NCBI GenBank assembly: GCA_963920705.1
Contig: OY987233.1
Coordinates: 9,268,959 to 9,332,958 of the forward strand
Source of the DNA: Odiellus spinosus
Taxonomy: Eukaryota; Arthropoda; Arachnida; Opiliones; Phalangiidae
Direction: 5' to 3'
DNA length: 64,000 nt
In this document: positions 16,201 through 38,966 of the stretch, in pieces
How positions within the stretch are numbered: position 1 is the stretch's first letter
Layout: each line of letters opens with the position of its first letter
Position numbers and translations under genes: made by a program
Notes under the pieces: model-generated
What the model saw: only the letters and a program-made list of their open reading frames with translations
What the model was told of the DNA's origin: nothing
Databases searched by the model: none

Positions 16201-17655
16201 TAAATTACAAAAATTGTAACTTTTAGCAACTAAATTACAAAAATTGTAACTTTTAGCAACTAAATTACAAAAATTGTAACTTTTAGCAACTAAATTACAA
16301 AAATTGTAACTTTTAGCAACTAAATTACAAAAATTGTAACTTTTAGCAACTAAATTACAAAAATTGTAACTTTTAGCAACTAAATTACAAAAATTGTAAC
16401 TTTTAGCAACTAAATTACAAAAATTGTAACTTTTAGCAACTAAATTACAAAAATTGTAACTTTTAGCAACTAAATTACAAAAATTGTAACTTTTAGCAAC
16501 TAAATTACAAAAATTGTAACTTTTAGCAACTAAATTACAAAAATTGTAACTTTTAGCAACTAAATTACAAAAATTGTAACTTTTAGCAACTAAATTACAA
16601 AAATTGTAACTTTTAGCAACTAAATTACAAAAATTGTAACTTTTAGCAACTAAATTACAAAAATTGTAACTTTTAGAAACTAAATTACAAAAATTTGGAA
16701 CTTTTAGAAACTAAATTACAAAAATTGTAACTTTTAGAAACTAAATTACAAAAATTGTAACTTTTAGAAACTAAATTACAAAAATTGTAACTTTCAGAAA
16801 CTAAATTACAAAAATTGTAACTTTTAGAAACTAAATTACAAAAATTGTAACTTTTAGAAACTAAATTACAAAAATTGTAACTTTTAGAAACTAAATTACA
16901 AAAATTGTAACTTTTAGAAACTAAATTACAAAAATTGTAACTTTTAGAAACTAAATTACAAAAATTGTAACTTTTAGAAACTAAATTACAAAAATTGTAA
17001 CTTTTAGAAACTAAATTACAAAAATTGTAACTTTTAGCAACTAAATTACAAAAATTGTAACTTTTAGAAACTAAATTACAAAAATTGTAACTTTTAGAAA
17101 CTAAATTACAAAAATTGTAACTTTTAGAAACTAAATTACAAAAATTGTAACTTTTAGAAACTAAATTACAAAAATTGTAACTTTTAGAAACTAAATTACA
17201 AAAATTGTAACTTTTAGCAACTAAATTACAAAAATTGTAACTTTTAGAAACTAAATTACAAAAATTGTAACTTTTAGAAACTAAATTACAAAAATTGTAA
17301 CTTTTAGAAACTAAATTACAAAAATTGTAACTTTTAGAAACTAAATTACAAAAATTGTAACTTTTAGAAACTAAATTACAAAAATTGTAACTTTTAGAAA
17401 CTAAATTACAAAAATTGTAACGTTATAGTAACTAAATTACAACAATTTTAAATTAATAGTAACTAAATTACAACAATTTTAAATTAATAGTAACTAAATT
17501 ACAAAAATTGTAACGCTTAGTTACTAAATTACAAAAATTGAAACGCTTAGTAACTAAATTACAAAAATTGTAACGCTTAACAACTAAATTACAAAAATTG
17601 TAACGCTTAATAATTAAATTACAAAAATTGTAACGTTTAGTAACCTTTATTTCAA
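16201..17655. repeat. 30-bp minisatellite, about 48 copies
   Basis: The unit is TAAATTACAAAAATTGTAAC followed by TTTTAGCAAC. Copies at 16201-16670 are practically identical (GCAAC type). From 16671 to 17410 the GAAAC type dominates, with single GCAAC units at 17038 and 17218. Copies beyond 17410 are diverged (CGTTATAGT, CGCTTAGT). The gradient suggests recent expansion at the left end. Confidence 0.97.
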
Positions 17656-24031: not shown

Positions 24032-24278
24032 TTAAAGGGAGAATGCAACGTAACAAGTGATTTTTTTATCGATTCCTTATCGTTTAAATAGGCCTAATCT
24101 TGGATTAATTAATAGGTTCCATATTAATGAATACATAGCCTAATCTACAAAAGGCAATTATACGGGATGTTCAGGTGATCTCCTTGAGTCCAGCTAAGCC
24201 TATTTTTCGGAAAATTTTAAATTTATTTCTAGTTTAATATTTCTTTGTAATTTTTGTTTGCTGTTGGTTTAGGGTTAT
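24032..24278. mobile_element. MITE family A, copy 3, left half, cut by the Polinton
   Basis: It starts TTAAAGGGAGAATGCAAC and follows the family through GAGTCCAGCTAAGCC to GCTGTTGGTTTAGG, where the Polinton interrupts it. The missing right end resumes at 38903. The last six bases, GGTTAT (24273-24278), are the left target duplication. Confidence 0.85.
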
Positions 24279-24573
24279 AGTAGTATGAAAATGAGCGTTT
24301 AAGCACAGGAGGTGCCAAGAGGTGCCGGAGGTGCCAAGAGGTGCCGGAGGTGCCAAGAGGTGCCGGAGGTGCCCAATTTTTTTTTTTTTTTTTTTCAAAA
24401 TTTTTTCATCCGGGTTTCGAACCCGGTACCTCATGTATGTGGGGATGACGTTTCACACCACTACACTACGTCTTCTTATCAACTTTTAAACTATTTTCCA
24501 TCCTTATCTATTTTCTCGGTTCTTATCTCTATGTTCAGATATCACGTGATTGAAAGTTTAAATTTTAAGGCGC
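24279..24573 (+). repeat. Polinton left terminal inverted repeat
   Basis: About 295 bp, inverted and about 95% identical to 38619-38902. Order from the outside: unique 25 bp, seven AGGTGCC units (24307-24374), a T run, a tRNA-like segment in reverse, and an AT-rich part ending near AAGGCGC. It differs from the right copy mainly by one AGGTGCC unit and single bases. Confidence 0.95.
24403..24475 (-). other. tRNA-like segment in left TIR
   Basis: Read on the minus strand it has TAGTGTAGTGGT (like tRNA box A), then a perfect 17-nt T arm CCGGGTTCGAAACCCGG (box B) at 24410-24426, followed by an A-rich tail. Box A and spacing are closest to tRNA-Asp from memory. The anticodon arm and acceptor do not pair well, so it is not a functional tRNA. 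Confidence 0.6.
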
Positions 24574-24944
24574 GAAGATATGGGAAAATCAGTTAGCTTT
24601 GGTATCTCTACCATTTACAAAATACCATATGAAGATAGGGTTAACCACGAATTTCGTCAATTATGTATGTTTAGAATGCGTATTAAATGCGTGTACGAAC
24701 CAATATTAAAACCAATACTGCAACTTAAACAAATGAAATATGAGTGATATGGGAAAACCCAACACGTCATTATATCAAAGGTCGCGTATTTTCATGGTAA
24801 AACATCTAGCTCCATCGTATAGATAAAGTCATTTTACGAAACTCCTGATACTCATCTAGACCTGCACTCTTCTGGTAAGTATTTTTTTAAGATCTTAAAG
24901 TCATATATATTCGATGATACTCCAATATTCTCTCATTTATCGAT
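24574..24944. promoter_or_regulatory. Polinton left leader region
   Basis: About 370 bp without a gene between the TIR and the ATPase. At 24748-24775 it carries GGGAAAACCCAACACGTCAT, the reverse form of the motif iterated at 37927-38251. It presumably holds the promoter of the rightward gene block; no clear TATA box is seen. Confidence 0.4.
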
Positions 24945-25580
24945 ATGGATTTAAGTCTGCAACACCCTTTTAACGGACTGGTGGCTGGAGTAACAGGATG
25001 TGGAAAAAGCGTCTTTGTTGCGAAATTAATTGAACACAAGGAAATTAGAATTTCGCCCCCACCCGAACGGATAATATGGTGTTATACTGAATACCAAGAC
25101 AAACTATTTAATTCCATATCGAGCCATACCCCAAGCGTGGAATTTCACGAAGGTCTATTGGATGTAGGCACTTTAAACGCCAACGTTAGAAACTTTGTTA
25201 TATTAGACGATCTTTTATGCGAAATCGCTAATAACAAGGAAGTTACCAACTTATTTATTCGAGGATCCCATCATCGGAATACCTCAGTATTAATTTTAAT
25301 GCAAAACCTCTACTACCCAGGAAAGGAAATTCGAACATTGAATCTCAACGCTCATTATCTGATAATCTTTAAAACACCGAGAGACCAATCTGCGATCCTA
25401 CATTTGGCGAAACAGATATCTCCAATCAACAGTAAATACGTTGTGGACGCGTTTAGACAAGCCACAGCTATCAGTTACGGATATCTATTCGTAGACCTCA
25501 AAGCTACGACCCCGGAAGATAGAAGACTAAAGACCGGGATTTTACCAGGAGAACAAGCCGCCATTTTTCTACCAAAATGA
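24945..25580 (+). CDS. Polinton DNA-packaging ATPase (FtsK/A32-like)
   Basis: 211 residues. Walker A GVTGCGKS is at residues 15-22, and a hydrophobic strand ending in two acidic residues (Walker B, VILDD) is at 85-89. RGSHHRN (sensor-like) and LILMQNLYYPGK follow. Such ATPases of the HerA/FtsK superfamily pump viral DNA into capsids in Polintons, virophages and adenovirus-like viruses. It is the first rightward gene and overlaps the next start by four bases (ATGA at 25577). Length is normal for the family and no damage is seen. Confidence 0.92.
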   Translation: MDLSLQHPFNGLVAGVTGCGKSVFVAKLIEHKEIRISPPPERIIWCYTEYQDKLFNSISSHTPSVEFHEGLLDVGTLNANVRNFVILDDLLCEIANNKEVTNLFIRGSHHRNTSVLILMQNLYYPGKEIRTLNLNAHYLIIFKTPRDQSAILHLAKQISPINSKYVVDAFRQATAISYGYLFVDLKATTPEDRRLKTGILPGEQAAIFLPK

Positions 25581-26056
25581 CCGGAATAATCGAAGCAAAC
25601 TTCTTCAGAGTTCAAGACCAATGGATCGTGAAAGAAATAACACTATTCGTGAAGGAGACGGGCGAACACGAGGTATGGATCTTTAAAGCGCCATTCCCAT
25701 TCACGGACTTATCGTCTAAGGATAAAAGACAATGTCAATGGCTGACGAGGAACAGTTGCGACTTACGCTGGGACGAAGGAGATCATCCATTCGAAGCTCA
25801 GACTGAAATTGCCAAAATCATACGAGAGAAAGCCATTACTTTTATAACCAAAGGCTTAGAAAAATCTATCGTGTTATCAAGGTTTTTGAAGACTGAAGTC
25901 GCTAACGCCGAAGATTTGGGCTGCCCAAGACTAGTAACTATAATTTGTGGAACGCCCAGAAGTTGTACGTTTCACCGAGACGAAAACAATTGTACGCTCG
26001 TGAAAGCTGCCCGATTAGCTACATGGCTCCGCCGAAGAGAGTACACGAGCACTTAG
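25577..26056 (+). CDS. Polinton protein of unknown function, 159 aa
   Basis: The start overlaps the ATPase stop (ATGA), as expected in a compact viral block. Soluble, mixed charge. The C-terminal part has a Cys/His cluster (GCPRL, then CGTPRSC, HRDENNC), which could bind metal. No homologue is recognised with confidence. The last 34 codons overlap the next gene in another frame. The tight overlap with neighbours supports that it is real. Confidence 0.7.
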   Translation: MTGIIEANFFRVQDQWIVKEITLFVKETGEHEVWIFKAPFPFTDLSSKDKRQCQWLTRNSCDLRWDEGDHPFEAQTEIAKIIREKAITFITKGLEKSIVLSRFLKTEVANAEDLGCPRLVTIICGTPRSCTFHRDENNCTLVKAARLATWLRRREYTST

Positions 26057-26361
26057 ACTTTCTAAAATATCTGAGTTCGTGTAACGCGTGTCAACGAAAC
26101 GCCGCCATTAAATACGCGAGTAAAGAAGAATTAAAAACCATCGCCGAATGTTGTATAAATATACTGCAGGGTAACGTTTCTCTCACAGATGACGAGAAGA
26201 AACGACTGAAGAAGCATTGCAATTCCATACGTCGCGTGGCCAAGAAAAATACTCCTGCTAAACGAAGACAAATTTTAATTCAAAAAGGTGGATTTCTCCC
26301 AATATTACTTCCGATAATCAGTTCGATAGCAGGAGCTATCCTATCTAAAGTTATCAATTAA
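26023..26361 (+). CDS. Small basic Polinton protein with hydrophobic tail, 112 aa
   Basis: The ATG at 26023 (MAPPKRVHEH) is chosen rather than one at 25945, because the family-like part starts there and overlap with the upstream gene is smaller. A Cys-containing helical region is followed by a Lys/Arg-rich stretch (KKNTPAKRRQ), GGFLP and a C-terminal hydrophobic segment. From memory, similar short basic proteins with a GGFLP segment are common in animal Mavericks near the packaging ATPase and resemble adenovirus core or membrane-active peptides; that role is inference. Its stop is two bases before the next start. Confidence 0.7.
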   Translation: MAPPKRVHEHLDFLKYLSSCNACQRNAAIKYASKEELKTIAECCINILQGNVSLTDDEKKRLKKHCNSIRRVAKKNTPAKRRQILIQKGGFLPILLPIISSIAGAILSKVIN

Positions 26362-26363
26362 AG

Positions 26364-26984
26364 ATGGCGAAAAAAATGCTATTAATTTCCGAGGAGACGT
26401 TCCAAAGACTTAATTCGGAGAAAGACCTCAAAGTGGATAAAACTTTGGAATTGGAAAAGGTCGATAAAATTAAAGACATTCTCGATGATCCCAATTTGAA
26501 CAACACGGACAAAATTAATCGCTATAATCACGTGCTCTCGAGGGTTATTAATAAAAGATCGAAGAAAAAAGTTAAAAAACCGAAAATACAAAATTGGAGT
26601 GCGGAGATTGCTTCCGGCGTGCCGTCATATATGACCTCGGAGTGTTTAGATTTATACAAGTGGTTAGAGTTATCATTGAAAATTAAATGGACTGACGCCG
26701 GGGAGTTGATTTACAACAAGCGTAGAGTCGTAGGATCGAACATCGTCGATCTCCTAGCTTATTCAGTATCAAAATCCAAGAAAAAAATCGCCGTCACGGG
26801 CTCGAAAGAGTTCTACGAATTGTTGTATAAAGTGAACGCGCCAAGATCTCTAATAAAAATCCGCAAACGTGACGTCATCCCACCCGAGAAGAGGGAATAT
26901 AAAGATGAAACGGAAGATGAGTATTATTCTGACGATAGCGGACCAATGAAGGGTCGCGGTTTCTGTAATTGGATTTCATTGTAA
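26364..26984 (+). CDS. Conserved Polinton protein, possible core protein, 206 aa
   Basis: It starts MAKKMLLISEE, is lysine-rich, and has a C-terminal half with the pattern GELIYNKRRVVGSNIVDLL near residues 111-129. I remember this kind of pattern from many animal Polinton/adintovirus genomes. An acidic tail follows (DETEDEYYSDD). The function is unknown; a DNA-binding or core role is only inferred from charge. An AATAAA lies 11 bases after the stop. Confidence 0.72.
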   Translation: MAKKMLLISEETFQRLNSEKDLKVDKTLELEKVDKIKDILDDPNLNNTDKINRYNHVLSRVINKRSKKKVKKPKIQNWSAEIASGVPSYMTSECLDLYKWLELSLKIKWTDAGELIYNKRRVVGSNIVDLLAYSVSKSKKKIAVTGSKEFYELLYKVNAPRSLIKIRKRDVIPPEKREYKDETEDEYYSDDSGPMKGRGFCNWISL

Positions 26985-26994
26985 TATTTATACC

Positions 26995-27000
26995 AATAAA
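26995..27000 (+). terminator. Possible polyadenylation signal
   Basis: AATAAA eleven bases after the stop of the 206-aa gene. It could end a first group of rightward transcripts (24945-26984). Confidence 0.4.
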
Positions 27001-27048
27001 ATACACTCGAATATATCTTCTCGATTCATTTATTAATTAGGCTTTGAC

Positions 27049-27237
27049 ATGGAGAGTGGTAATGTCGAGGTTGTCTCTGTAGGACTTTTAGCGTCTCTAT
27101 TCGAGTCATTTATAAATTCTCCCAAGTTATTAACTGCAGTTTTAATTGTATTTATAATAATAATTATAGAAGTTAGCGATTTTGTATTCTGGCATTATAG
27201 TACTTCGAACAACTGTTCATTCAATGGAAGAACTTAA
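27049..27237 (+). CDS. Small single-span membrane protein, 62 aa
   Basis: A short acidic N terminus is followed by an uninterrupted hydrophobic segment (LLTAVLIVFIIIIIEV, about residues 27-42), then VFWHY and a polar tail. It overlaps the integrase start (27224) by 14 bases in another frame. No homologue is recognised. Position and predicted membrane span support a real small viral membrane protein, but AT-rich chance coding is possible. Confidence 0.45.
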   Translation: MESGNVEVVSVGLLASLFESFINSPKLLTAVLIVFIIIIIEVSDFVFWHYSTSNNCSFNGRT

Positions 27238-28294
27238 AAAAATATATAATAAGGTTTCGGATCCGGGCTCTTACGGTAGTGTTGACGGCTTATACCGAGC
27301 GGCTAAAGACCGAGGATTAAAGGTTACTGTCAGAGAAATAAGCGATTTCTTGAAAACCCAAGATACTTATACGCTTCACAGGAGTGCGAGGAAACACTTC
27401 ACTAGAAATAAAACTATAGTCTACGGAATCGACGAACAGTGGCAAATCGACTTGGCTGATTTGAAAAGCATTACCAGATATAATAATGGTTTCCGTTATC
27501 TATTATGCTGTATCGACGTCTTCAGTAAGTTTGCCTTCGTGGTTGCGATCAAGGACAAGAAAGGAAAGACTATTCTCGGAGCGTTAAACGGCATTTTAGA
27601 TTCCGGTCGTTCGCCGAAACGAATCCAATCGGATCACGGTAATGAGTTTGTATGCAAGGAAGTACAAAACGAGTTGAAACGTAGAGGGATAAAGTTTTTC
27701 GCCCCCGAATCGGAACTGAAAGCGACGATAGTGGAGAGATTTAATCGGACTTTGAAGACTCGAATGTACCGTTATTTTACGGAAAATAATACCTTCAAAT
27801 ATATCAATGTTCTAAAAGAGATGGTGAAAGCTTATAATCATAGTTATCATCGATCTATAAAGTGTAAACCCGTCGATGTCACGCCAGCTACATCTAAACG
27901 TGTTTGGGAAAATCTATATGGTGACGTCGATTTCTCGACTCCGCTTTCTTTCCCCTTTGATGTTGGTGACGTAGTTCGTATAAGTAAACACAAGAATCTC
28001 TTCGATAAGGGATACATACCCACATGGTCGGAAGAACTTTTCAAAATTTCCGAGAGATTAGCTCGTAGTCCTCCTGTATATAAGATACGCGACTTGAAAG
28101 AAGAGCTCATTACCGGGATTTTTTACCGAGAGCAACTACAGAAAATTGGCAAGGACCTGAGTAACAGCGCTTTTAAAATCGAAAAAGTGTTGAAAAAACG
28201 ACGCAAGGCTGACGGAAGTATCGAGAGATTCGTCCGCTGGAAAGGATACCCGCCATCATTCGACAGTTGGGTGCAGGAAATTGACCTTGCATGA
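27224..28294 (+). CDS. Polinton integrase with C-terminal chromodomain
   Basis: The start at 27224 (MEELKKIYN) is chosen because the fourteen codons before it overlap the membrane-protein frame and look non-coding. 356 residues. Retroviral-type rve core: D76 in WQIDLADL, D137 in QSDHGNEF, E171 in VERFNRTLK. The C-terminal 45 residues form a chromodomain (FKIEKVLKK, RWKGYPPS, SWVQEIDL), which in other elements directs integration to modified histones. The enzyme joins TIR ends to target DNA and makes the 6-bp duplication seen here. The catalytic triad is complete. Confidence 0.94.
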   Translation: MEELKKIYNKVSDPGSYGSVDGLYRAAKDRGLKVTVREISDFLKTQDTYTLHRSARKHFTRNKTIVYGIDEQWQIDLADLKSITRYNNGFRYLLCCIDVFSKFAFVVAIKDKKGKTILGALNGILDSGRSPKRIQSDHGNEFVCKEVQNELKRRGIKFFAPESELKATIVERFNRTLKTRMYRYFTENNTFKYINVLKEMVKAYNHSYHRSIKCKPVDVTPATSKRVWENLYGDVDFSTPLSFPFDVGDVVRISKHKNLFDKGYIPTWSEELFKISERLARSPPVYKIRDLKEELITGIFYREQLQKIGKDLSNSAFKIEKVLKKRRKADGSIERFVRWKGYPPSFDSWVQEIDLA

Positions 28295-29130
28295 TGACGT
28301 TCTACATAACCCTACCGTCAGACAGTTCTATGAGTTACTTCCCAGGGAATACAATCAGTAAATTTCGAACACATTTACCGGAATCGGTTAAATTACAAGG
28401 TCCGTACGAAGTTGCTTTGGTGGAATTCAGTTATCCCCACACATGGAGCAATATGAGATCGTCGTGCTGGATATCGTTAACTAACCACGGGGAAAATAGA
28501 AATAGCACGAGTCATTCTAGAGCGGTAGAACTCCCCGCGGGCTACTACGGAAATATAGAAGACCTATTGGAGCAACTCAATTACGACGAAGATGATATCT
28601 CGAACGTGACTATACTGAAAAAGGAGACGCCAGTCGAAGGTGATATGTTTGAGTCGGAGACGACGACGAATGTTAAATACACGTTTAGTTATATCGCGCG
28701 ATTAAGACGTGTTGAAGTTTCCGTAAAACCGGATCACTCGTTAACTATACCGGGAGAGTTGGCGGTCATGTTGGGATTTACGAAAGACCATACAAAAACT
28801 ACGACGATCGTCCACGCGAGAATAGCCAGTTATCCGGTGGATTTAAACGCTGGTCTTCATTCACTCTTCATATATTCCGATATCGTTGAAAGTAGGGCTG
28901 TAGGTGACGTTCATGTTCCGCTTCTACGAATAACGAGCGTTCAAGGGAATGACGGGGATACGATAGACAGAGAATTTTCTCGTCCTCATTACCTCCCAGT
29001 TTCCTGCAATTCCTTTCAATCTATCGAAATTAACGTTATGAGTGAAATTGGAGTACCCGTCAAGTTCGAAAGAGGTAAAGTTCACGCGACTCTACATTTT
29101 AGACCTCGAAGAATGTGGTCGCCCTTATAA
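28291..29130 (+). CDS. Polinton minor capsid (penton-like) protein
   Basis: 279 residues. The start overlaps the integrase stop (ATGATGA). The N terminus MTFYITLPSDSSM and a following segment with EVALVEFSYPHTW are typical of the single jelly-roll minor capsid proteins assigned in Polintons, which sit at the vertices of the virion. Assignment is from remembered family pattern, not from a search. No frameshift. Confidence 0.75.
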   Translation: MMTFYITLPSDSSMSYFPGNTISKFRTHLPESVKLQGPYEVALVEFSYPHTWSNMRSSCWISLTNHGENRNSTSHSRAVELPAGYYGNIEDLLEQLNYDEDDISNVTILKKETPVEGDMFESETTTNVKYTFSYIARLRRVEVSVKPDHSLTIPGELAVMLGFTKDHTKTTTIVHARIASYPVDLNAGLHSLFIYSDIVESRAVGDVHVPLLRITSVQGNDGDTIDREFSRPHYLPVSCNSFQSIEINVMSEIGVPVKFERGKVHATLHFRPRRMWSPL

Positions 29131-29190
29131 ATAAGCCGGCAGTATGGACGCGCTCGCCATTCTTATCGAGATAGTTAAACGAGACGCATC

Positions 29191-29676
29191 ATGAAGCAAA
29201 AACTGTCCTCCACTCAGTCGGACTACGATCGTCACTTTTTAAATCAAATTGGACACGGGATTAAGGTTGACTACGCAAAATATTTCCAAAGTCAAATAGG
29301 AAAGGGTTCGATACCCGTATACCATGGTCTTCCTGTTCAACAAGGATACGGTCTAGGAAACTTTATCGCCTCGGCCTTCCGTCGAGCCGTACCACTTTTG
29401 AAGAAGGGAGCCATGTATCTTGGGAAAAAACTGTTAAATACTGGATCTAAAATCGTTACTGACGTAGCTAGTGGAATTCCCGTAAAATCCGCGGCTAAAT
29501 CTCGAGGTAAAGACGCCGCGAGAGATGTCGTAATCAGTGCCGCGGACGAAATCGCTAGAATGACTGGAAATGGGCATAAAAGAAAGTGTAAGCGTCGAAG
29601 GCTAGTCAGTTCAACGACGAACAGGAAGAAGAGAAGACCGTTCTTAAAACCCTCCGATATATTTTCTACAATATAA
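29191..29676 (+). CDS. Polinton pVI-like protein, 161 aa
   Basis: A glycine-rich middle part (GYGLGNFI) is followed by an amphipathic basic region (FRRAVPLLKKG, GKKLLNTG) and a very basic C terminus (KRKCKRRR, RKKRRPFL). This order matches the putative adenovirus pVI/pX-like, membrane-active or core proteins of Polintons. Alternative: purely a DNA-condensing core protein. Its last base is the first base of the next start codon. Confidence 0.7.
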   Translation: MKQKLSSTQSDYDRHFLNQIGHGIKVDYAKYFQSQIGKGSIPVYHGLPVQQGYGLGNFIASAFRRAVPLLKKGAMYLGKKLLNTGSKIVTDVASGIPVKSAAKSRGKDAARDVVISAADEIARMTGNGHKRKCKRRRLVSSTTNRKKRRPFLKPSDIFSTI

Positions 29677-31022
29677 TGGCTCATATCCATCCCGATTCCC
29701 AAGGTTCGGTTAGTTCCGAAGTCGAACTTTTCAACGTTCCGCTCACAAACGCTAGTATTGTGAGTGGAGAATGGGTTGAGTATAGTCCCATCTCGAACAT
29801 TAACGAAAATTCAACTCTAACCTTCGCCGTGGCCGGAAACTCCGATACGTACATTGATTTGTCCAAAACTTTGTTACATCTACAAGTTAGACTCGTCGAC
29901 CCAGCGGACGGGAGAACAATTCCAGCGGCGGCAGTAATCGATGCGGCTGGGGTAATCACCACACCGGCGGATGTGGTAGCGCCCGTGAATCTGTTTCATT
30001 CGAGCCTTTTTAGCGAGGTACACGTTTCCTTGGGCGATAGATCGGTAACACCATCGCCGCAGAACTATGCCTACAAGGCCATGTTTCAAACTACCGTGAC
30101 TTTTGGTGGACCTGCGAAAACGAGTTTTCTAACGGCTGCCATGTACTACAAGGATACTGCCGGAAAATTCAACACCCCGTCGGACAATGAAGGTTTCAAG
30201 AAAAGAGCAAGTTTCGCTAAACAAGGGACCATTGATATGATTGGCGCGGTTCACACGGATTTGTGTCAACAGTCTCGTTTTATTCCGAACATGATTGACT
30301 TGAAATTTAAATTTATTAAAAGCTCCAACGAATTTTGTATTCAAACCTTAGCGGGTGGCGTTAGATGGAAGGTACAATACGAACTCGCTTCCCTGTATAT
30401 CAGAAAAGTAAAATTAACTCCCGAGATTACAATTGCCCACGCCAAATGTCTCGAACTAGCTACCATGAAATATCCAATAACTCGAACGGAGTGTAACTCT
30501 TTTTCCATAAATAGCGGAACTAAAATTTGCGTTAGAGATAATCTCTTTATGGGACAGTTACCCAAACGTGTCCTTTTCGCTCTGGTAGAACAGAACGCGT
30601 ATCTAGGTGATTATGCCCAGTCACCCTTTAATTTCCAACACTTTGATCTAAATCATATCGCTCTCTACCTCGACGGAACTAGCGTTCCTCACAAGCCTTT
30701 AACCCCTAATTTCGAGGGACATCAGTATATGAGATCGTACACTAATCTTTTCACTCAAACATCCCAATGGCTCATAGACGAAGGGAACTTTATCTCACGC
30801 GAAGAGTTTCCTGGTGGGAACTGTATTTTCGTATTTGATTTGAGTGCTGACCTCAGTTGTTCAGCTTCGCAATTTCAGTTGATAAAGAATGGTAATTTGC
30901 GATTAGAATTAAAGTTCGCCAGGGATTTGCCGAAGACTGTTAGCGTATTATACTACGCCGAATTTCAAAATTTAATTGAAATTGACAAAAACAGGAACGT
31001 TATTTACGATTATACCAATTAG
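29676..31022 (+). CDS. Polinton major capsid protein (double jelly-roll)
   Basis: 448 residues. The N-terminal pattern ELFNVPLTNASI then GEWVEYSPIS and YIDLSKTLLHLQVRL is the hallmark of the double jelly-roll major capsid proteins of Polintons, which assemble the icosahedral shell. The middle has LTPEITIAHAKCL and the C terminus NGNLRLELKFARDLP. The length is slightly short but within range. Placed between the pVI-like gene and protease, as in many Polintons. No stop or frameshift. Confidence 0.9.
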   Translation: MAHIHPDSQGSVSSEVELFNVPLTNASIVSGEWVEYSPISNINENSTLTFAVAGNSDTYIDLSKTLLHLQVRLVDPADGRTIPAAAVIDAAGVITTPADVVAPVNLFHSSLFSEVHVSLGDRSVTPSPQNYAYKAMFQTTVTFGGPAKTSFLTAAMYYKDTAGKFNTPSDNEGFKKRASFAKQGTIDMIGAVHTDLCQQSRFIPNMIDLKFKFIKSSNEFCIQTLAGGVRWKVQYELASLYIRKVKLTPEITIAHAKCLELATMKYPITRTECNSFSINSGTKICVRDNLFMGQLPKRVLFALVEQNAYLGDYAQSPFNFQHFDLNHIALYLDGTSVPHKPLTPNFEGHQYMRSYTNLFTQTSQWLIDEGNFISREEFPGGNCIFVFDLSADLSCSASQFQLIKNGNLRLELKFARDLPKTVSVLYYAEFQNLIEIDKNRNVIYDYTN

Positions 31023-31025
31023 AAA

Positions 31026-31490
31026 ATGGACTCTCAGCAGTTAGCTAAAATAATGGAAAAAGATTCGTTCACTAAAGGTCTGTTTCGAGGTATTTTCGCA
31101 GCCGATAATTTACCCAAAACTGTTAAAACCTTTCCTTCACTCTATATTGTAAATACGGGATTATCACATACCGATGGCGAACATTGGACGGCTATCTATT
31201 TTTCTAGTAATAAGAATACAGAGTTCTTTGACAGTTTCGGTAACCCTCCCGACATGTTTAAATTTAACGATTTTGTGGAAAGAAACAGTATAACTGTTAC
31301 ATTTAATTCCAAACAATTACAAGGGAACTTTAGTATGACTTGTGGCGGATATTGTGTTTATTTTGCATTGTATAGATGCAGAGGTGTTAAATTGTTTAAT
31401 ATATGTGCAAGATTTAAAAAAGATAAAAATGTTAATGATAAAATGATTTCTGAATTTATGTATAAGAGATTTTCAATAAACTTTTTTTAA
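31026..31490 (+). CDS. Polinton maturation protease (adenain-type cysteine protease)
   Basis: 154 residues. Catalytic H53 is in GEHWTAI, D69 in FFDSFG, Q99 and C106 in the CGGYC segment. The Q-to-C spacing of seven equals that of adenovirus protease. Members cut capsid precursors during virion maturation. It starts three bases after the major capsid stop. A polyadenylation hexamer (AATAAA, 31475-31480) lies inside its last codons. Confidence 0.9.
   Translation: MDSQQLAKIMEKDSFTKGLFRGIFAADNLPKTVKTFPSLYIVNTGLSHTDGEHWTAIYFSSNKNTEFFDSFGNPPDMFKFNDFVERNSITVTFNSKQLQGNFSMTCGGYCVYFALYRCRGVKLFNICARFKKDKNVNDKMISEFMYKRFSINFF
31475..31480 (+). terminator. Polyadenylation signal overlapping protease end
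   Basis: AATAAA ten bases before the end of the stop codon, followed by a T-rich run. It probably ends the rightward transcripts. Confidence 0.5.
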
Positions 31491-31862
31491 GAAAAATACT
31501 TGTGTTTTTTATCTAACCTAACCTAACATAATTTAAGTTTCACACATATAATTGACGGGAGGGCGGCAGTGCGCGGAAGTCGCGGGCGCGCGCGCGATTC
31601 AAATTTCAAACGCGCGCGGTTAATTTTGAAACGCGTCGCGGCGCGGTAGGCGCGGGGCAGCCCCTCCACCCTGACCTCTGGTTTAGACTTAAGTATGAAT
31701 AATAAGCTTAAGTATAAATAATTTCCAAGTTTGATTTTGCACTATATATTTATTATTGAATATATATTCAGTTAAAGAAAAAAATAACAGTTGAATGAAA
31801 AATAAAAAAAATAAATAAATAAATAAATAAATAAAAAAAAATACAAGATATTTTTATAAAAA
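31491..31862. other. Convergent spacer with GC-rich island
   Basis: Between the converging protease and PolB genes. AACCTAACCTAAC is near 31508, then a CpG-rich island at about 31555-31675 (runs of GCGCGCG and a pair of TTCAAA/TTTGAA stretches), then AT-rich sequence with AATAAATAAATAA. On the minus strand AATAAA at about 31748-31753 could serve as the PolB polyadenylation signal. No gene. Confidence 0.6.
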
Positions 31863-32618
31863 CTATTCCTTTGGAATTTTAAAATGTCCATGTGCGAGAG
31901 TTGAAACACCGTCTAGAATGTATCGCTTGTCGTCACATGGATTGAGACAAAGTTTGGTTTGTTTTACCGTGAAAAGTTCGTGCTTCTTGCTAACGATGCG
32001 CTTCATAGACTCGACCGTAAGCTTTCGTTTAAGAAGACATTCGCGATACTGAGCATGGCGAACGTTTTTTTTAACGACGCGGCGGCAAATGCCCTTTGCG
32101 GTCTTCTTCTCACCCTTGGCTGATATCATGGAATACATTTTGGGACGAAGTCCGCAAAATTCCTGAACTGGAGTCCCATCTAATTCGTCTTTAAATTTGC
32201 CGAGAACTTTCTTGTTGGTTTCACTGTAAAGTGGGTGATCTTTCGGATACCCCGAGAAGTCGTAGGCGTCGCTATTAGCGGCAAAATCTTTGTATAGATC
32301 GTCCGTTTCGATGTGGTACGTCAGGGAGTCTGTGTCCGTAAATAAAAGTTTGGCGGCATCTCCATACTGCGCTCGAATTTTATCGTAATGGAAACGATAC
32401 ATCAGGAGTTTTGAAAGGTCCAAAATGGCGAATCCTGTATAGATGGGCCTGTCCAGGGTTAGGCTTTTCTTCGTGCAGTGGATTCCAACTAAATCGTTTT
32501 GGAAGATGGTGAATCGTTCGAAGGTTGGTGAGTTGGTTTTCTTAATCGCCCGTTCGGGCGTCTGGACGAGATGGAAATTTATGCGGTTTCTTAGATTCTC
32601 CATGGTCTTACCTATTTA

Positions 32619-32712
<94 letters not shown>

Positions 32713-34151
32713 TGTTTGCTATCGGTTAGGTTAGGTTAGGTTACATACCAAAGACCGCGTTATTCATGAGTTTGAAGAAATCTTTGTCGAAATCATTGGT
32801 TGCCATTTTCCTCTTCTCGGTGTTGAAGTCAATGTACGGTTTCAACCATGCCCCCTGTTCGAATGCTATAACCCGATGAACTTTGCTAACGATCATCCCC
32901 TTCGAAAGGTAGTATTTAAGGTTCCTGTAATGTATCACGTACTTCTCTTTTTTGTAAAGGGATGGGACAAGTTTAGGGAAACTGTCTTTTTCCTTCAAAC
33001 CGAGCTCATTAAGCAGGTCTTTCGAGAACGTAGATAATTCCGAAACCTTAATTACGCGTTTTTCCGGGGCTAAAGGGTAGCAGTTATGCTCATTATGGAG
33101 ATGCTCGGGGTATTCCAAGTCAACCTCGAGAATGTAACCAACGGGGTCGTCGTCGAGATGGTTTTTGATAATTTCTTCTACGAAATTGGGGCATGGATCA
33201 ACCCATCTGAACCTCCTCATAGGCAGCTTCTCACCCATCACAGTGCCGTACAGATTGTTGCAGTCTGTCGAAAATAAATAAAAATAAAATAATGACTTAG
33301 AAAAAAAAACAAAAAAACCCACAACAACAACAACAACACATACCAACATAAGCGATGAAGCTAGTAGGTTTTGACCGATCGTAAGTTTCCGGTAGGTACT
33401 TATTATTCGCCTGGGCAAATCTATGACTGATCATAGCCACTCCACCCCTTATGCCTTTCTCGATAAAAAGATGCATGTCGGGGTCCAGCAGGAGGTCCAG
33501 TTTCACCCTCGTCATGTGCAGGGCACTTTCCCAAGCGTAACCGGGTCCGGTGAAAGCATGTGCGCAGTCTAACCCATAATAGTCCATGCACATGGTCCGA
33601 AAATTTTGGAAGATATCCGCTAATAGTAACACGTCGGATTGGACATATAAGTCGTGATATTCACCTAAAATATGAGAAAAAAATATTATTTCTTAACCTA
33701 ACCTAACCTGGCAAAATATTTAACTCACCAAGATTTTTGATATTAAACTTCTCCCATACTGTCTGGGCATGAGCGTAATCCCCGTCGGTGATGTGTTCAT
33801 CGGTTAAAGAGTTGAAGAAGGCGGTCTTGGGTGGCAACTCCGTTTCGTCAAACCTCGTTGTACTGTCCATATAATCATATGCATATACTTGTTTTCGAAG
33901 TAAAAGTTTGACTTCGTCAGGGTTATAAACCTTGTTCATGCAAGCGAATTTTGCCGGTCCACCCTTAGCCAGATTTCCGACTAGGGTTTCGAGTGATGCC
34001 GGCATGAATCTGGCCGTGTCCAGAAATCTCAATTTACCGAAGGAAAAAGAAATATAGCGCTCCTCACTAGTAGGGATGCAATTAATCTCCGGATCCTTGA
34101 TTAGCCCTATTCTACACATAATTAGGTTCGCATCGTAGCTGGAAAAAGAAT

Positions 34152-34182
<31 letters not shown>

Positions 34183-36518
34183 ATAAAAAATTATAAATAC
34201 ATGTATATATTTACCGAGAAAGGTTGTGTAGAAATACAGGGATGAACCCCGGTGGTTTGAGCTTCAAATTACAAGAGTTGTGCGCTGCACCCCTAAACGC
34301 TCCGGTGGTGTGATCGTGATCACGTACTTTATAATCCTTGTCACTGAACAGATTCCCGCATACGTAACAGTTTCTTTCCGCCAAATACTTTAATTCTTCT
34401 GCCTGACTAAGTTTCATTGGAATGTTTTCCTTAATTTTTTCTTCCAAAATGGAATACTCCAATAACAGGTTTTCCAGAAACTTGTCGGTTGCGTCCATTC
34501 CCCGGTAGGTAACAGGTTTTGATGGTGATCCGTCCGGACCGACAATGACGTAAGAGAACCCACAGGATATATGACGGGATAGAGTGGTTGTAGCCGAGAG
34601 GGTATCGTCAGGCATACATGTCGAAACCTTCGGTAGGATCGCTTCGAAATCTGCATAGATGACGTACTTTATCTAAAAAAAAAGAAAAGAAAAATCAAGA
34701 TAATTTAAAAATAATAATATTAATAAAAATGAAATAACATACATTTTGACGCCATCCGTACTTCTTGAACTCCAAGACCGGTTCCTTAACCGGCATTAGA
34801 ATCTTTTGGGCGCCATGATCTCTGCAATCTTCTGCGTGAATGTCACACCTCACCTCGGAGTCAGGACCGGCGAATCGATGTAGGCAAAATCGACAATAAT
34901 GTACCGTTCCGTTATGTTTCGTGAAATCACTAAGCAGACGACTTAGACTACGAATTAGTGTGTAATGTTTTTTTTCCCCTTTCGTGATTAGCAAAAGATC
35001 GATTTCACGAGCTTTCTCGACTCTCTTCGCGCTAATATAGAGAGGAAACACGAATTTTTCGAAGCTAAATATATTAACCGATATATTGTTTCTGTCCTCG
35101 AATTTTTTTAATTTTTGGGCATCTAGTTCAAAAGGGAAAGTTATCCCCGATAAGTCTAGCTCATCCTCAAATCTAATATATTGTTGAACCCGATTAGAAT
35201 TATTTTTAGCAGGATGTAAATGAGCTAAAACCGACCATAGAAAACACCGATTGTCTTCGTTTTTAATGTTTACAACTGCGTGTTTAGAGACTAGTACTTT
35301 AGGTAACTCGATATAAGTTCCACCTACCAGCGGTAAATAAGTAATAATATTTACTTGCATAAATAAGATCCGGTCGATAGTCCATCCACTACCGCGTTTT
35401 TGGAAATCCTCGATTTTCCGTTTTAGAGTTTCCAAACACAAGTCAATTTGATTATTAATAGTGTCTGGTGTTAAAGTGACTTGCACGTCACTATTATGAT
35501 ACGCGAGAAACTCCACTTCCTCACCCGTGTTAAGTTCGCGAACGTACCGTACGCGCGTGGTTAAATACCATTTGAGTCCTTTGTCGCGAGCTAACTTCGC
35601 TTGAAGATAGTTTATGAGGGCTGCCCTGTGGCGGTTTATGTAAACCTCCGCGTCAGTCTCCGTAGCCGCCGGAGTGAAGCGCGCGCAGAAAATCGCGTTT
35701 CTTAGCGCGATCATTTCCTCTAGCTGATCGAGGAGGCGGGGCTCATCTGGCGTGGCGACGTCTGCATGTGGAAGGGCGTCCGCTTCCCGATCTTCCATGG
35801 CTCGCATGAAATTCTGAAGTACTTCATTTTCGTCAGCGTTGAGACTCCCCATCGGAAATTCCTCCTCATCGAAGAATTCTTCGAGGCCGGCGTCATTTTG
35901 ATTATCCAAAAATCCCCTCTCCAAGACGTCGATATCGTCGGGTACTCTCGTGGTGGATGAAGCGCTAGTCGTGGCAGGTGGAGTTGTATTCCATGTAGAT
36001 GGAGTCGAGGTCGATGTAGATGGAGCCGAAGTCGATGTAGATGGAGCCGAAGCCGATGTAGATGGAGCCGAAGCCGATGTAGATGGAGCCGAAGCCGATG
36101 TAGATGGAGCCGAAGTCGATGTAGATGGAGCCGAAGTCGATGTAGATGGAGCCGAAGTCGATGTAGATGGAGCCGAAGTCGATGTAGATGGAGCCGAAGT
36201 CGATGTAGATGGAGTAACGGGAACTGTTCGGGAAGTTGACGGGGTTGGCGGCATTATTTCGATGGTCCAGGATGGACCTTCATCTATCTTCATCTTCTTT
36301 GCGGTCTCGGTGGGGACCTCGTAACAGCGGCGTCGTTTCGCTGGACTTGCTCCTGGCCTATGACGGGTGAATACATGCCGGACTGCGTTCTCTTTCCTCG
36401 AGAATGTTAGATCGCAAAAACTACATGGAAATTTATCATCTCCATGTTTTTCACGTTCATGACGAAGTAAACTTTTGTTTGCCGAAAATTTGGCGCCGCA
36501 AGTACCGCAGATTACCAT
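31863..36518 (-). CDS. polB: Polinton protein-primed DNA polymerase B, six exons
   Basis: Exons in order: 36518-34743, 34672-34215, 34138-33729, 33664-33344, 33264-32749, 32611-31863. Every junction is GT/AG, the phases agree, and the frame is open for 1,409 residues. Two C2H2 fingers are near residues 4-55 and a Pro/Ser/Thr repeat (PSTSTSA) near 100-165. Exonuclease motifs: D600 and E602 in YADFEAIL, SRYDANLI at 744-751, YVQSD at 888-892. Polymerase motifs: A DCNNLYG at 989, B around the exon 5/6 junction (NNAVFGK), C DTDS at 1253-1256, KMYS near 1318. All catalytic residues are present. The enzyme replicates the element from a protein primer at the TIR ends. The introns are short (52-137 bp) and AT-rich. 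It looks broken only if introns are ignored. Confidence 0.93.
32628..32709. repeat. (AT)n microsatellite in PolB intron 5
   Basis: About 40 AT units between acceptor and donor of the last PolB intron, followed by GGTTAGGTTAGGTTAGGTTA at 32724-32743. Confidence 0.95.
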
Positions 36519-36640
36519 ATTTAAACTAAGTTCTAACTAGTTTCTAACTTTTAAATTTAAAAGTTTTAATATTACCAGATGAGATCCCGTCGCTTGATGA
36601 GAGAGCTGGAACTTGTGATAATTTGAATTGAAAAATTCAG

Positions 36641-36650
36641 TATTTATACC
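36641..36650 (-). promoter_or_regulatory. TATA box of PolB
   Basis: GGTATAAATA on the minus strand, about 120 bases upstream of the PolB start at 36518 and after AAAGG. The same GGGTATAAA form precedes the PC4-like gene, suggesting a shared promoter class for the leftward genes. Confidence 0.6.
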
Positions 36651-36922
36651 CTTTCTTATCTTAAACAATGAGTCACTGATTAATTGGGGAAACGCTAGCC
36701 TTTATCTCACTCTGAAAGAATCGACCCTTGATTAGAATTAGCAGTGGCCATTTTGAAATCAATGATGGGAAAGACAAATATAACTTAAAACTTAACCCAG
36801 AGAATTTTTCCGTTGGTAAAACTCCTTTGATATGAGCAGAATATGAAAAGTTTTATTTGCTTACTATATCAATATGGAGAAATGAGTCATATATTTAGAG
36901 TATGAATATTATATTATTTATT

Positions 36923-37801
36923 TTACAAATATTGTTTAGAAATACGAATAATTTTAGTAACCATTTGCTTACAAAAATCAAAACTTAAAAAAGTTGAATT
37001 ATTAAAAATTTCCGTAATTAATTGGATATTTAAATTATTAACCGCGGTTGAAAAATTCATTTCAACACGGTCTGACCAATCGTGTATAAGACAATCATGT
37101 TGATTTTGAGATGGATGGTCAATTAAACACCCATTGCATGAGTTTTTAATAATGTCCGTTAGCTGTGAAACTACTATGTCCTTAATAGCTTGGTAAACTT
37201 TCTTGGATTCGTTCAGCATGATCTCGACTTGTTGATGTTTTTCTAGGAGTCTCTCCCATAGAACGTGTCCAATAGCGAATCCATTTTTAGTGGGAAATAG
37301 CATCCCATAGTTCTTCCCGTTTCCCGTCGTCATTTCACGGATATTAAGCATCTTTCGGTCCTGGTATGACTTGAGTTCCACCCGTTTATGATTTGACCCT
37401 TCCAAGAAAATTGAGGAAGGACTTGCGTCCTCGTTTTGAAAGTATCGGGAGATTTCTTCCCTCATTCGGTATATTTGGAAGTACTCGTCCTCGCTGAGAT
37501 TGATTCCAGTGGATCCGTCGGTAAATCCGAGTCTAATTTTGCAATCAGGGGTGATAGTGACCGCTTTGCTCGATGAGATTTCGAATACATTGGTGTTGTC
37601 CCTGCAAATGATAGAAATGACTAAGTTAATTTAGGGAAATAATTTATTTAAGGGAAACTAATATTAGTGTAGTTATTTAAGGTAAAACTCATATTTAGCG
37701 GAAAGCTAGAGTTATTTAGGGTTAAGTTAACAGTTTCTAAGTTATTTAGGGTGAAACTAGTAATTTCTAAGTTTATTTTAAGAGCAAAATGGTACTTACA
37801 T
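36923..37801 (-). CDS. PC4-like single-strand DNA-binding protein, start codon split by an intron
   Basis: The two first bases of ATG (37801-37800) end exon 1. An intron (GTAAGT at 37799, TTTGCAG ending 37602) follows, and the third base opens exon 2 (37601-36923). 226 residues. Two successive parts resemble PC4-type beta-sheet domains: one near residues 19-45 (RLGFTDGSTGINLSEDEY), one near 70-115 (VELKSYQDRKMLNIRE, then KNGFAIGHVLWERLL). The C-terminal half has CNGCLIDHPSQ and HDCL, a Cys/His pattern I recall in other animal Polintons. PC4 domains bind single-stranded DNA, so a replication role beside PolB is inferred. A TATA box lies 74 bases upstream of the start. Confidence 0.75.
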
Positions 37802-37874
37802 TTTTAGTGATCCTGTAGATGACTGGAATACGGTTGAAGGCAACTTTAAATGAATAATCTATAATGAATTCTAG

Positions 37875-37886
37875 CTTTTATACCCT
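37875..37886 (-). promoter_or_regulatory. TATA box of PC4-like gene
   Basis: GGGTATAAAAG on the minus strand, 74 bases before the split start codon. It agrees with the classic metazoan TATA box; with transcription starting about 30 bases downstream the first exon would be short. Confidence 0.7.
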
Positions 37887-37926
37887 GAAATAGACGTTAT
37901 ATCAGTGTTTAAAGTTGTGAAATAGG

Positions 37927-38340
37927 TTTTCCCAATGACGCATAGGGTTTTAACAAGCGTTTCTGAGTCATATCAGTACTTGTAATTGGGAAATGGGTTT
38001 TTCCCAGTGACGTGTTGGGTTTTACAGACATTTCCCAATGATTACTTGGAAAAACCGCACACGAGGGTATTAATCTTAACGTTTTATGTGGGGTACATTC
38101 TGGTTTTCCCCAATGACGTGTTGGGTTTAACCATAAATTTTAACATGGGTTTCCCAAAGATTACTTGGAATAACCGTACACGAGGGTATTAGGCTTAACG
38201 TTTTTAGTTGGGTACATTTCGGTTTTCCACACTGACGCGTTGGGTTTAACCACGAGTTTTAATTGTATATATTATTGATTTATTTCGAATCTTCATACAC
38301 GTGGTAATTAGGCCTAACGATAGATATTTTGTTTTAAATA
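37927..38340. repeat. Iterated TGACG motif and about 118-bp repeats upstream of leftward genes
   Basis: TTCCCAATGACG..GGGTTT elements lie at 37927, 37998, 38103 and 38221. The last three head imperfect repeats of about 105-118 bp that share CGAGGGTATTA, TTAACGTTTT and GGGTACATT. One reverse copy is at 24748-24775 near the other end. TGACGTG resembles a CRE/ATF site. It may be an enhancer or replication-linked iterons (inference). Confidence 0.65.
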
Positions 38341-38618
38341 TGGTCTTCACCAACTTGTTTAAGTATTTTTCCACATTTATATATCAGTTTATGCAAATAA
38401 TCGTATATTTACAGTTCCATTTTATAGTTATATTTACTATGTGAAATTCTTCATCTTAAATATTTGACAAGTTTTATATTTTTCCTCGTGCGTTTTGAGA
38501 TAAGACCTGACATAGGTGATAACGCGATATGAGAACCGCGCGAAATTCGAAAAAGACAAACGCAGAGATAAGGTTTCAGTATAGGTTCAGTATTAGTTAT
38601 AGATTCACATTTGATTTG

Positions 38619-38902
38619 GCGCCTTATCATTTAAACTTTCAATCGCGTGATATCTGAACATAGAGATAAGAACCGAGAATATAGATAAGGATGGAAAATA
38701 GTTTAAAAGTTGATAAGAAGACGTAGTGTAGTGGTGTGAAACGTCATCCCCACATACATGAGGTACCGGGTTCGAAACCCGGATGAAAAAATTTTGAAAA
38801 AAAAAAAAAAAAAATTGGGCACCTCCGGCACCTCTTGGCACCTCCGGCACCTCCGGCACCTCTTGGCACCTCCTGTGCTTAAACGCTCATTTTCATACTA
38901 CT
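38619..38902 (-). repeat. Polinton right terminal inverted repeat
   Basis: About 284 bp, the inverted partner of 24279-24573, with six AGGTGCC units instead of seven. It ends CATACTACT before the duplication GGTTAT. Confidence 0.95.
38717..38789 (+). other. tRNA-like segment in right TIR
   Basis: TAGTGTAGTGGTG (box A) is at 38724-38736 and the 17-nt T arm with GGTTCGAAACC (box B) at 38766-38782. An A-rich tail of about 20 A follows, as in a tRNA-derived SINE. It is the mirror copy of 24403-24475. Confidence 0.6.
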
Positions 38903-38966
38903 GGTTATTTAAACGAAAAGAAATTGATAAAAAAATCACTTGTTAGGTTGCATTCTCCCTTTATTA
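38903..38966. mobile_element. MITE family A, copy 3, right end after the Polinton
   Basis: GGTTAT (right target duplication) is followed by TTAAACGAAAAGAAATTGAT and GGTTGCATTCTCCCTTT, the family A right end. Joined to 24032-24278 it makes one family A element missing nothing but the insertion. Confidence 0.85.

What the first reader, a model, noticed from the sequence alone, without database searches (positions are those of the whole stretch)
24273..38908. Complete, apparently intact Polinton with exact 6-bp target duplication inside a MITE
Seen directly: AG...CT ends, paired TIRs, GGTTAT on both sides and a family A MITE split at that point (24032-24278 plus 38903-38966). Twelve genes are open with all key catalytic residues. 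Polintons in animal genomes are mostly decayed; one with capsid, packaging, protease, polymerase and integrase all intact may still be mobile or able to form virions. The closest named group would be adintoviruses.
Basis: partly seen in the sequence, partly recalled or inferred. Interest (0 to 1): 0.9.

Follow-up and report, generated by a model that had tools for sequence, protein, structure and literature searches.

The report
Polinton with mirror-image fold-back copies
A harvestman genome carries a complete virus-like DNA element (a Polinton) with near-identical copies elsewhere, and several other copies are mirror-image fold-back versions that were likely made by a slip while the element copied its own DNA, which would show how such elements replicate.

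Summary
In detail: 24279-38902 is a 14,624-bp Polinton with paired TIRs, a GGTTAT duplication and a MITE split there. One correction: the polymerase is six pieces separated by five GT-AG interruptions, conserved in a diverged copy, so introns rather than decay; I count eleven genes. By COX1 the host is a phalangiid harvestman. Three standard copies elsewhere have every gene piece full length without stops, which indicates recent mobility; capsid genes look constrained (MCP dN/dS 0.04-0.05 in two informative comparisons). The new part lies outside the window: many family members are fold-backs with two left ends (LL) or two right ends (RR). Of 13 inverted end pairs, 11 were confirmed; arms compared end to end (8) are 99.7-100% identical, three read at the centre 95-99%. 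Six of eight with ends read carry their own matching 6-bp duplication; two have reciprocally swapped flanks. Four LL turn-around points fall within 377 bp. Three LL copies hold packaging, capsid and integrase genes but almost no polymerase; the best-read RR copy the reverse. I read them as snap-back replication products integrated as such. Ten searches of a held library listed no fold-back Polintons.

The parts
24032..24278 (.). left part of family A MITE interrupted by the element
   Evidence: terminal arms 93% complementary; rejoined site matches other copies across the join
24273..24278 (.). target site duplication GGTTAT, left
24279..24576 (.). left terminal inverted repeat; GGTGCC repeats, T tract, tRNA-like T-arm motif
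24413..24423 (-). Pol III B-box-like GGTTCGAAACC in the left TIR, facing outward
   Evidence: same 11 bases in all 8 TIRs compared
24945..25580 (+). packaging ATPase
   Evidence: Adeno_IVa2 E 2.3e-4, just under Pfam cut-off; Walker motifs by eye
25577..26056 (+). 159-aa gene, no Pfam match
26023..26361 (+). pX-like core protein
   Evidence: Adeno_PX E 9.5e-5, under cut-off
26364..26984 (+). 206-aa gene, no Pfam match
27224..28294 (+). RVE integrase with chromodomain
   Evidence: rve E 2.2e-11, Chromo E 7.7e-6, both above cut-off
28291..29130 (+). penton (minor capsid) candidate
   Evidence: position upstream of MCP; family assignment recalled, no supported Pfam or PHROGs match
29191..29676 (+). 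pVI-like candidate
   Evidence: sequence look only, recalled
29676..31022 (+). major capsid protein, double jelly roll
   Evidence: 379 homologues; model pLDDT 83.9, best matches PBCV-1, Sputnik and mavirus capsid proteins among others
31026..31490 (+). adenovirus-like protease
   Evidence: Peptidase_C5 E 7.1e-4, just under cut-off
31491..31862 (.). gap with a GC-rich stretch between convergent protease and polymerase genes; turn-around region of LL copy C13
31863..32615 (-). polymerase piece 6 (DTDS motif, recalled)
   Evidence: aligned on its own with the C47 copy, 86%
32613..32717 (.). (TA)n tract inside interruption 5; four LL turn-around points lie 31 to about 400 bp left of it
32741..33280 (-). 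polymerase piece 5
33330..33692 (-). polymerase piece 4
   Evidence: DNA_pol_B_2 E 0.022, below cut-off
33703..34125 (-). polymerase piece 3
34211..34672 (-). polymerase piece 2 with endonuclease VII-like stretch
   Evidence: Endonuclease_7 E 1.2e-6; PHROG endonuclease VII E 2.6e-7
34695..36518 (-). polymerase piece 1, N-terminal C2H2-like fingers (under cut-off) and a 21-nt repeat tract
36923..37465 (-). PC4-domain protein
   Evidence: PC4 E 1.8e-6, above cut-off
38616..38902 (.). right terminal inverted repeat
38769..38779 (+). B-box-like GGTTCGAAACC in the right TIR, facing outward
38903..38908 (.). target site duplication GGTTAT, right
38909..38966 (.). right part of the interrupted MITE

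Best explanation
Window 24273-38908 holds a complete 14.6-kb Polinton, one copy of a multi-copy family in a harvestman genome, and the family's linear DNA is predicted to be copied outside the chromosome by its own polymerase, where strands that likely snap back on themselves give mirror-image copies that the integrase would then insert like ordinary ones. Shown: structure, TSDs, near-identical copies, coding constraint, fold-back copies with nearly identical arms, most with their own TSDs, and clustered turn-around points. Inferred: that copying is protein-primed and extrachromosomal. Also inferred: that a nascent strand stalls in the middle of the element (between the convergent genes and the (TA)n tract, 31.5-32.7 kb), folds back at little or no homology and copies itself back to its own end. 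Inferred too: that polymerase-less LL copies and integrase-less RR copies were moved in trans by complete relatives.
For: Standard copies on C5, C2 and C11 align with the window element over both halves (4/4, 4/5 and 0/9 mismatches per ~7.3-kb half, 98.8-99.9% identity with gaps), with all 16 gene pieces full length and no stop. LL copies on C11, C2 and C232 run 24279-29027 then turn at 32398 back to 24279. C1 turns at 32541/28372, C5:3121 at 32582/28058, C4 between about 32205 and 32270, C13 near 31.72 kb. RR palindromes: C2:18206, C47, C17:4919 (centre only), C2:27017. Arms 99.70-100% identical, gap columns (0-18) not counted, in the 8 compared end to end. Matching own TSDs in 6 of 8 fold-backs whose ends were read. 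Four LL turn-around points, taken as independent because their junctions differ, span 377 bp; chance of so small a range 4.5e-5 under a uniform model, post hoc. RR copies C2:18206 and C47 share a centre at 95.9% but differ by 6-31% in four other shared pieces, while their own two arms are 99.98 and 99.94% alike: this fits arms renewed within each molecule.
Against: No reads, RNA or extrachromosomal DNA were seen. Joining of two broken molecules gives the same LL shape, and junction homology is short (about 1-3 bases in LL1 and C1, by eye). Three confirmed fold-backs were read only near the centre and are less perfect there: C4 94.9%, C13 99.0-99.4%, C17:4919 97.9% with gaps. In 4 loci (standard C5 and C2; LL C2 and C232) left and right TSDs differ but match reciprocally between partners, which points to assembly swaps or exchange. 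Mid-point stretches of two further RR pairs (C5:674862-702661, C2:29384020-29394993) showed no long palindrome. C1 has a rearranged centre with the junction present twice. At C17 two Polinton left ends have COX1 fragments beside them and inverted COX1 fragments 9-12 kb away, so some inverted structures may be chromosomal. Polymerase identity rests on one sub-threshold Pfam match and recalled motifs; a structure model of piece 6 failed (pLDDT 29).
Confidence: 0.7

Rival explanations
1. Two broken linear genomes, each keeping the same end, were joined tail to tail by host end joining, and the product, with proper TIRs, was integrated.
For: LL junctions in LL1 and C1 have only about 1-3 shared bases; asymmetric arms (4.7 kb against 8.1 kb) are natural for two fragments.
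Against: Turn-around points cluster; the RR centres of C47 and C2:18206 are short imperfect hairpins rather than blunt joins; arms are near-identical within each element though the two RR copies differ by 4-31% in shared pieces.
Confidence: 0.25
2. The fold-backs are assembly artefacts from hairpin reads or collapsed repeats.
For: Reciprocal TSD swaps exist in 4 loci, and 200-N gaps lie near two of them.
Against: In the fold-backs whose arms were aligned with flanks, arms stop at the element ends (within 5 bases beyond, in C2:18206), and six loci have matching TSDs; the same LL junction recurs in three loci and other junctions differ; most arm pairs carry small differences.
Confidence: 0.08
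3. Inverted pairs arose in the chromosome by recombination between neighbouring copies or by inverted duplication.
For: COX1 fragments in opposite orientation lie around Polinton left ends at two C17 places.
Against: Fold-backs with ends read stop at TIRs with their own TSDs in 6 of 8 cases, and LL1 sits at three places.
Confidence: 0.07
4. It is only an old, decaying Polinton with a broken polymerase.
For: Polymerase in six pieces.
Against: Breaks start GT, end AG and recur at the same places in the C47 copy; near-identical copies and low dN/dS.
Confidence: 0.03

Closest known systems
Polinton/Maverick elements, such as intact vertebrate Mavericks (PMC8097293, passages and abstract lines seen)
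   Same: TIRs with AGT...ACT ends, 6-bp TSD, integrase, capsid, protease, ATPase and polymerase genes, purifying selection; that paper reports 134 intact elements in 17 species
   Different: That paper describes intronless genes; here the polymerase has five predicted introns, and fold-back copies are common
Adintoviruses (recalled, no phylogeny done)
   Same: Animal Polinton-type virus gene set
   Different: Placement not tested; no virion or free genome seen
Symmetric defective adenovirus genomes with inverted left-end duplication (recalled; one search, listed nothing on them)
   Same: Both ends are the same viral end, arms inverted, made during protein-primed replication
   Different: Those are particle genomes; these are inherited insertions with TSDs
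Palindromic derivatives of protein-primed yeast linear plasmids (recalled)
   Same: Mirror-image derivatives of terminal-protein-type linear DNA
   Different: Cytoplasmic plasmids, not integrated
Fold-back models and origin-dependent inverted-repeat amplification (PMC4689423, passages seen)
   Same: Inverted copies started at short interrupted inverted repeats
   Different: Chromosomal forks in yeast; here a mobile element with an integrase
Foldback-like transposons such as Galileo (PMC3573991, search listing only)
   Same: Long inverted arms
   Different: P-element-type transposase, not a capsid-bearing Polinton

Membership tests
Polinton/Maverick | terminal inverted repeats with AG...CT ends | tested here: met
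Polinton/Maverick | 6-bp target site duplication | tested here: met
   GGTTAT; matching TSDs also at standard copies C11:11154826 and C17:997121; standard C5 and C2 have reciprocally swapped ones
Polinton/Maverick | retroviral-type (rve) integrase | tested here: met
   rve E 2.2e-11 above cut-off
Polinton/Maverick | family B DNA polymerase | tested here: inconclusive
   one piece matches DNA_pol_B_2 at E 0.022, under cut-off; motifs recalled; PHROGs and solved-structure search gave no polymerase; model of piece 6 failed; pieces were not joined
Polinton/Maverick | protein priming by a terminal protein | not testable with these tools
   inferred from the family only
Polinton/Maverick | double jelly-roll major capsid protein | tested here: met
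   (Pfam DJR-like match only E 0.12)
Polinton/Maverick | penton protein | tested here: inconclusive
   no supported profile match; assigned by position
Polinton/Maverick | adenovirus-like protease and packaging ATPase | tested here: inconclusive
   Pfam matches just under the curated cut-offs
Polinton/Maverick | size 15-20 kb (PMC4028283, passage seen) | tested here: not met
   14.6 kb, marginally short; I treat this as a usual range, not a defining limit
Adintovirus | placement in the adintovirus clade | not tested
   no tree built
Snap-back replication product | both ends the same genome end, arms near-identical and inverted | tested here: met
   11 of 13 inverted end pairs confirmed, 8 along the arms and 3 at the centre
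Snap-back replication product | inserted as a unit with its own TSD | tested here: met
   6 of 8 with ends read; the other 2 carry reciprocally swapped flanks
Snap-back replication product | formed on extrachromosomal linear DNA | not testable with these tools
   needs DNA from animals

The most novel reading that the evidence does not exclude
The fold-back forms are not dead ends but a working division of labour: LL elements carry packaging, capsid and integrase genes, RR elements carry the polymerase, and each spreads as a self-templating palindrome helped by the other half, a Polinton splitting into complementary segments or satellites inside an animal genome.
Probability: 0.13. Interest if true: 0.92.

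Novelty: new variant of a known kind. Interest (0 to 1): 0.72.

Why it matters
How Polintons copy themselves has been inferred from their polymerase and capsid genes (recalled). Fold-back insertions with TIRs, TSDs and near-identical arms are inherited products that fit linear, end-primed copying outside the chromosome, and they make that model testable by sequencing alone. They also show polymerase-free and integrase-free derivatives that would have to be moved by helpers, in a family with near-identical copies and constrained capsid genes.

Tried and rejected
Decay of the polymerase: rejected, because interruptions are GT...AG and recur at the same places in a diverged copy. Dating by TIR divergence: rejected, because left and right TIRs differ by 5, 14, 5 and 6 mismatches in the four standard copies compared and some right-type bases recur in other copies. 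A full tRNA gene in the TIR: ARAGORN (bacterial code) and Rfam at E up to 5 listed none; five aligned versions gave no compensatory change, so only the conserved B-box-like arm is claimed. Viral contigs: one scan of eight allowed, four pattern matches, no confirmed relative. Solved-structure sequence searches: none for MCP or polymerase piece 6. Piece 2 was set out of frame, so its dN/dS rows are discarded; its frame was corrected, but its dN/dS was not recomputed. Structure of piece 6 failed. Genome-wide searches with the polymerase, the TIR module and the left flank did not complete. In one search I grouped 40 of 51 left-end rows, 30 of 57 right-end rows and 40 of 40 MCP rows; the rows left out are short fragments and right-end TIR hits on left ends.
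Full report
OBSERVATION. The element spans 24279-38902 (14,624 bp). Its ends read AGTAGT...ACTACT. TIRs are 24279-24576 and 38616-38902. GGTTAT flanks both ends, and the flanks are parts of a MITE; the rejoined site aligns across the join with three other stretches of the window.

GENES. On the plus strand lie an ATPase (Adeno_IVa2, E 2.3e-4, just under cut-off), a 159-aa gene, a pX-like gene (E 9.5e-5, under cut-off), a 206-aa gene, an integrase (rve E 2.2e-11; chromodomain E 7.7e-6), a penton candidate, a pVI-like candidate, the capsid protein and a protease (Peptidase_C5, E 7.1e-4, just under cut-off). The penton and pVI labels are from position and recall. The capsid protein has 379 homologues (best 120 listed), several of the named ones F54H12.2-like, from a spider, a starfish, a butterfly, a mealybug and a soft coral. 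Its model (pLDDT 83.9) matches double jelly-roll capsid proteins of PBCV-1, Sputnik and mavirus, among others (E down to 1.6e-16, TM-scores about 0.5-0.65). On the minus strand lie a PC4-domain gene (E 1.8e-6) and the polymerase.

POLYMERASE. It is six open pieces. One matches DNA_pol_B_2 at E 0.022, under cut-off, and another endonuclease VII at E 1.2e-6 (PHROGs E 2.6e-7). The exonuclease- and polymerase-motif readings are recalled. The five interruptions begin GT and end AG. In the C47 copy the same six pieces occur in order at 63-86% protein identity. I take the interruptions as introns. The pieces were not joined. In C47 one arm has a stop in piece 6 and the other arm none.

HOST. The window carries a schnurri/HIVEP-like gene (name recalled; 2751-12711, minus); its best named relatives are from a spider and two mites. 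COX1 on contig C286 is 98% identical to Oligolophus tienmushanensis and 95% to a Phalangiidae cluster: a phalangiid harvestman.

COPIES. The left-end query gave 51 matches (40 of 248 candidates scored), the right-end query 57 (40 of 225), the capsid gene 40 full-length matches at 96-100% (40 of 128). Counts are lower bounds. Standard copies on C5, C2 and C11 differ from the window element by 4/4, 4/5 and 0/9 mismatches per half, 98.8-99.9% identity with gaps. Each of the three has all 16 gene pieces full length without stops. In an older standard copy on C17 the best match is partial for six of 16 pieces (one is short by a single residue and piece 6 is cut by my fetch boundary), with one stop.

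CONSTRAINT. Against the C5:3121 copy dN/dS is 0.04 (MCP, C-terminal 242 codons, dS 0.15), 0.06 (integrase), 0.02 (ATPase), 0.08 (penton), 0.09 (pVI), 0.18-0.29 (159-aa, pX, 206-aa and protease genes). Against C17 it is 0.05 (MCP, 340 codons) and 0.05 (polymerase piece 6, dS 0.48), 0.14-0.17 for penton, pVI and polymerase pieces 3 and 4, and 0.31-1.71 in seven genes or pieces with dS under 0.05. Against C1 changes are too few to judge (MCP 0.59 from three changes), and the C1 integrase match holds one stop. In the C17 pair dS runs from about 0.01 to 0.49 between genes, which suggests exchange between lineages (inference). Constraint on capsid genes fits spread through particles; the same argument was made for cyprinid Mavericks (PMC8097293, passages).

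FOLD-BACK COPIES. Grouping the three hit lists gave 66 places, 19 of them with two ends: 6 standard, 7 LL and 6 RR (rows used are stated under Tried and rejected). This ratio is biased, since a fold-back offers two good ends to one query. All 7 LL and 4 of 6 RR were confirmed: 8 along the arms, 3 only near the centre (C4, C13, C17:4919). LL on C11, C2 and C232: 24279-29027, then 32398 back to 24279. C1: junction 32541/28372, present twice around some 7 kb without a match. C5:3121: 32582/28058. C4: palindromic centre between about 32205 and 32270, 94.9% over 1.86 kb; inverted MCP copies on both sides. C13: centre near 31.72 kb, 99.0% over 1.1 kb, with a 1.4-kb insert present on both sides (99.4%). 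RR: C2:18206 and C2:27017, C47, C17:4919 (centre, 97.9% over 0.9 kb). Mid-point stretches of the two remaining RR pairs showed no long palindrome, so these are unconfirmed. Three further places have MCP orientation or pairing that suggests fold-backs, not read.

ARMS, TSDs, GENES. Arms are 99.70-100% identical in the 8 compared end to end (1.9-6.8 kb; gap columns 0-18 not counted; some 20 bases at the centre of C2:18206 left out). TSDs match in 6 of 8 fold-backs with ends read: TATAAG (C11), AGGGTG (C1), AATATA (C2:18206), ACCCTC (C2:27017), ACCTTC (C5:3121), GGGGAG (C47). LL on C2 and C232 have swapped partners (CGCGGT/CTTGTG), as do standard C5 and C2 (GTCGTA/TACATT), so each duplication is still present twice. 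LL C11, C2 and C232 hold ATPase to protease; no match at E 1e-6 was found for polymerase pieces 1-5 or PC4, and piece 6 is partial. MCP appears cut there only because my fetched pieces divide it; one search shows it full length. RR C47 holds polymerase and most of PC4, with no match to any of the nine plus-strand genes. C2:18206 holds PC4 and only a distant part of polymerase piece 1, and C2:27017 has PC4 and the 159-aa gene, so RR copies are not all polymerase carriers.

MECHANISM. Four LL turn-around points with different junctions lie within 377 bp, just left of a (TA)n tract at 32613-32717 (uniform-model chance of such a range 4.5e-5; five events with C13 span 858 bp, 1.2e-4; the three proximal points span 969 bp, 0.04; post hoc). 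RR centres in C47 and C2:18206 are short imperfect hairpins beside a shared 460-bp stretch that gave no match in three other copies sampled there (L044-L046). The two RR copies differ by 4% at the centre and 6-31% in four other shared pieces, while each one's arms are nearly identical: one arm seems copied from the other within each molecule. I infer snap-back of a nascent or displaced strand during end-primed copying, second-strand completion from the shared end, and integration. Tail-to-tail joining of two broken molecules is the main rival.

LITERATURE. Ten searches of the held library, seven of them with Polinton or Maverick among the terms, listed no title or abstract on fold-back or palindromic Polintons. 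Passages were read in PMC8504770, PMC6431247, PMC8097293, PMC4028283, PMC12721341 and PMC4689423; no whole text was read. The library lacks most subscription journals, so absence in print is not shown.

VERDICT. The fold-back derivatives of its family are the finding.

Noticed in passing
24396-24500 and 38700-38800: Both TIRs hold an outward-facing tRNA-like T-arm (GGTTCGAAACC) followed by an A-rich stretch; the 11-base motif is unchanged in all 8 TIRs compared although neighbouring bases vary.
   Followed up: partly
L017/L018 with L019/L020, and L011/L012 with L013/L014: Left and right target duplications are swapped reciprocally between two pairs of loci, with 200-N gaps 0.5-0.75 kb outside two of them; assembly swap or ectopic exchange.
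   Followed up: partly
G000 C17:3125637-3136983 and C17:4376162-4393978: COX1 fragments lie directly beside Polinton left ends, with further COX1 fragments in the opposite orientation 9-12 kb away.
   Followed up: no
G000 C17:997121-1012040: Synonymous divergence from the window copy jumps between about 0.01 and 0.49 from gene to gene, as if the copy were a mosaic.
   Followed up: partly
window 2751-12711: Exons of a schnurri/HIVEP-like zinc-finger host gene on the minus strand (name recalled).
   Followed up: partly
window 16051-17422: Large 30-bp tandem array with long open frames on the minus strand.
   Followed up: no
window 53223-55895: Five tandem copies of a unit of about 533 bp with inverted repeats; Rfam matches miRNA families there below the gathering score, probably because of the inverted repeats.
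   Followed up: no
L028 (C2:27017000-27026600): RR-type fold-back with a 159-aa gene and a PC4 gene between 1.9-kb arms, apparently a separate lineage.
   Followed up: partly
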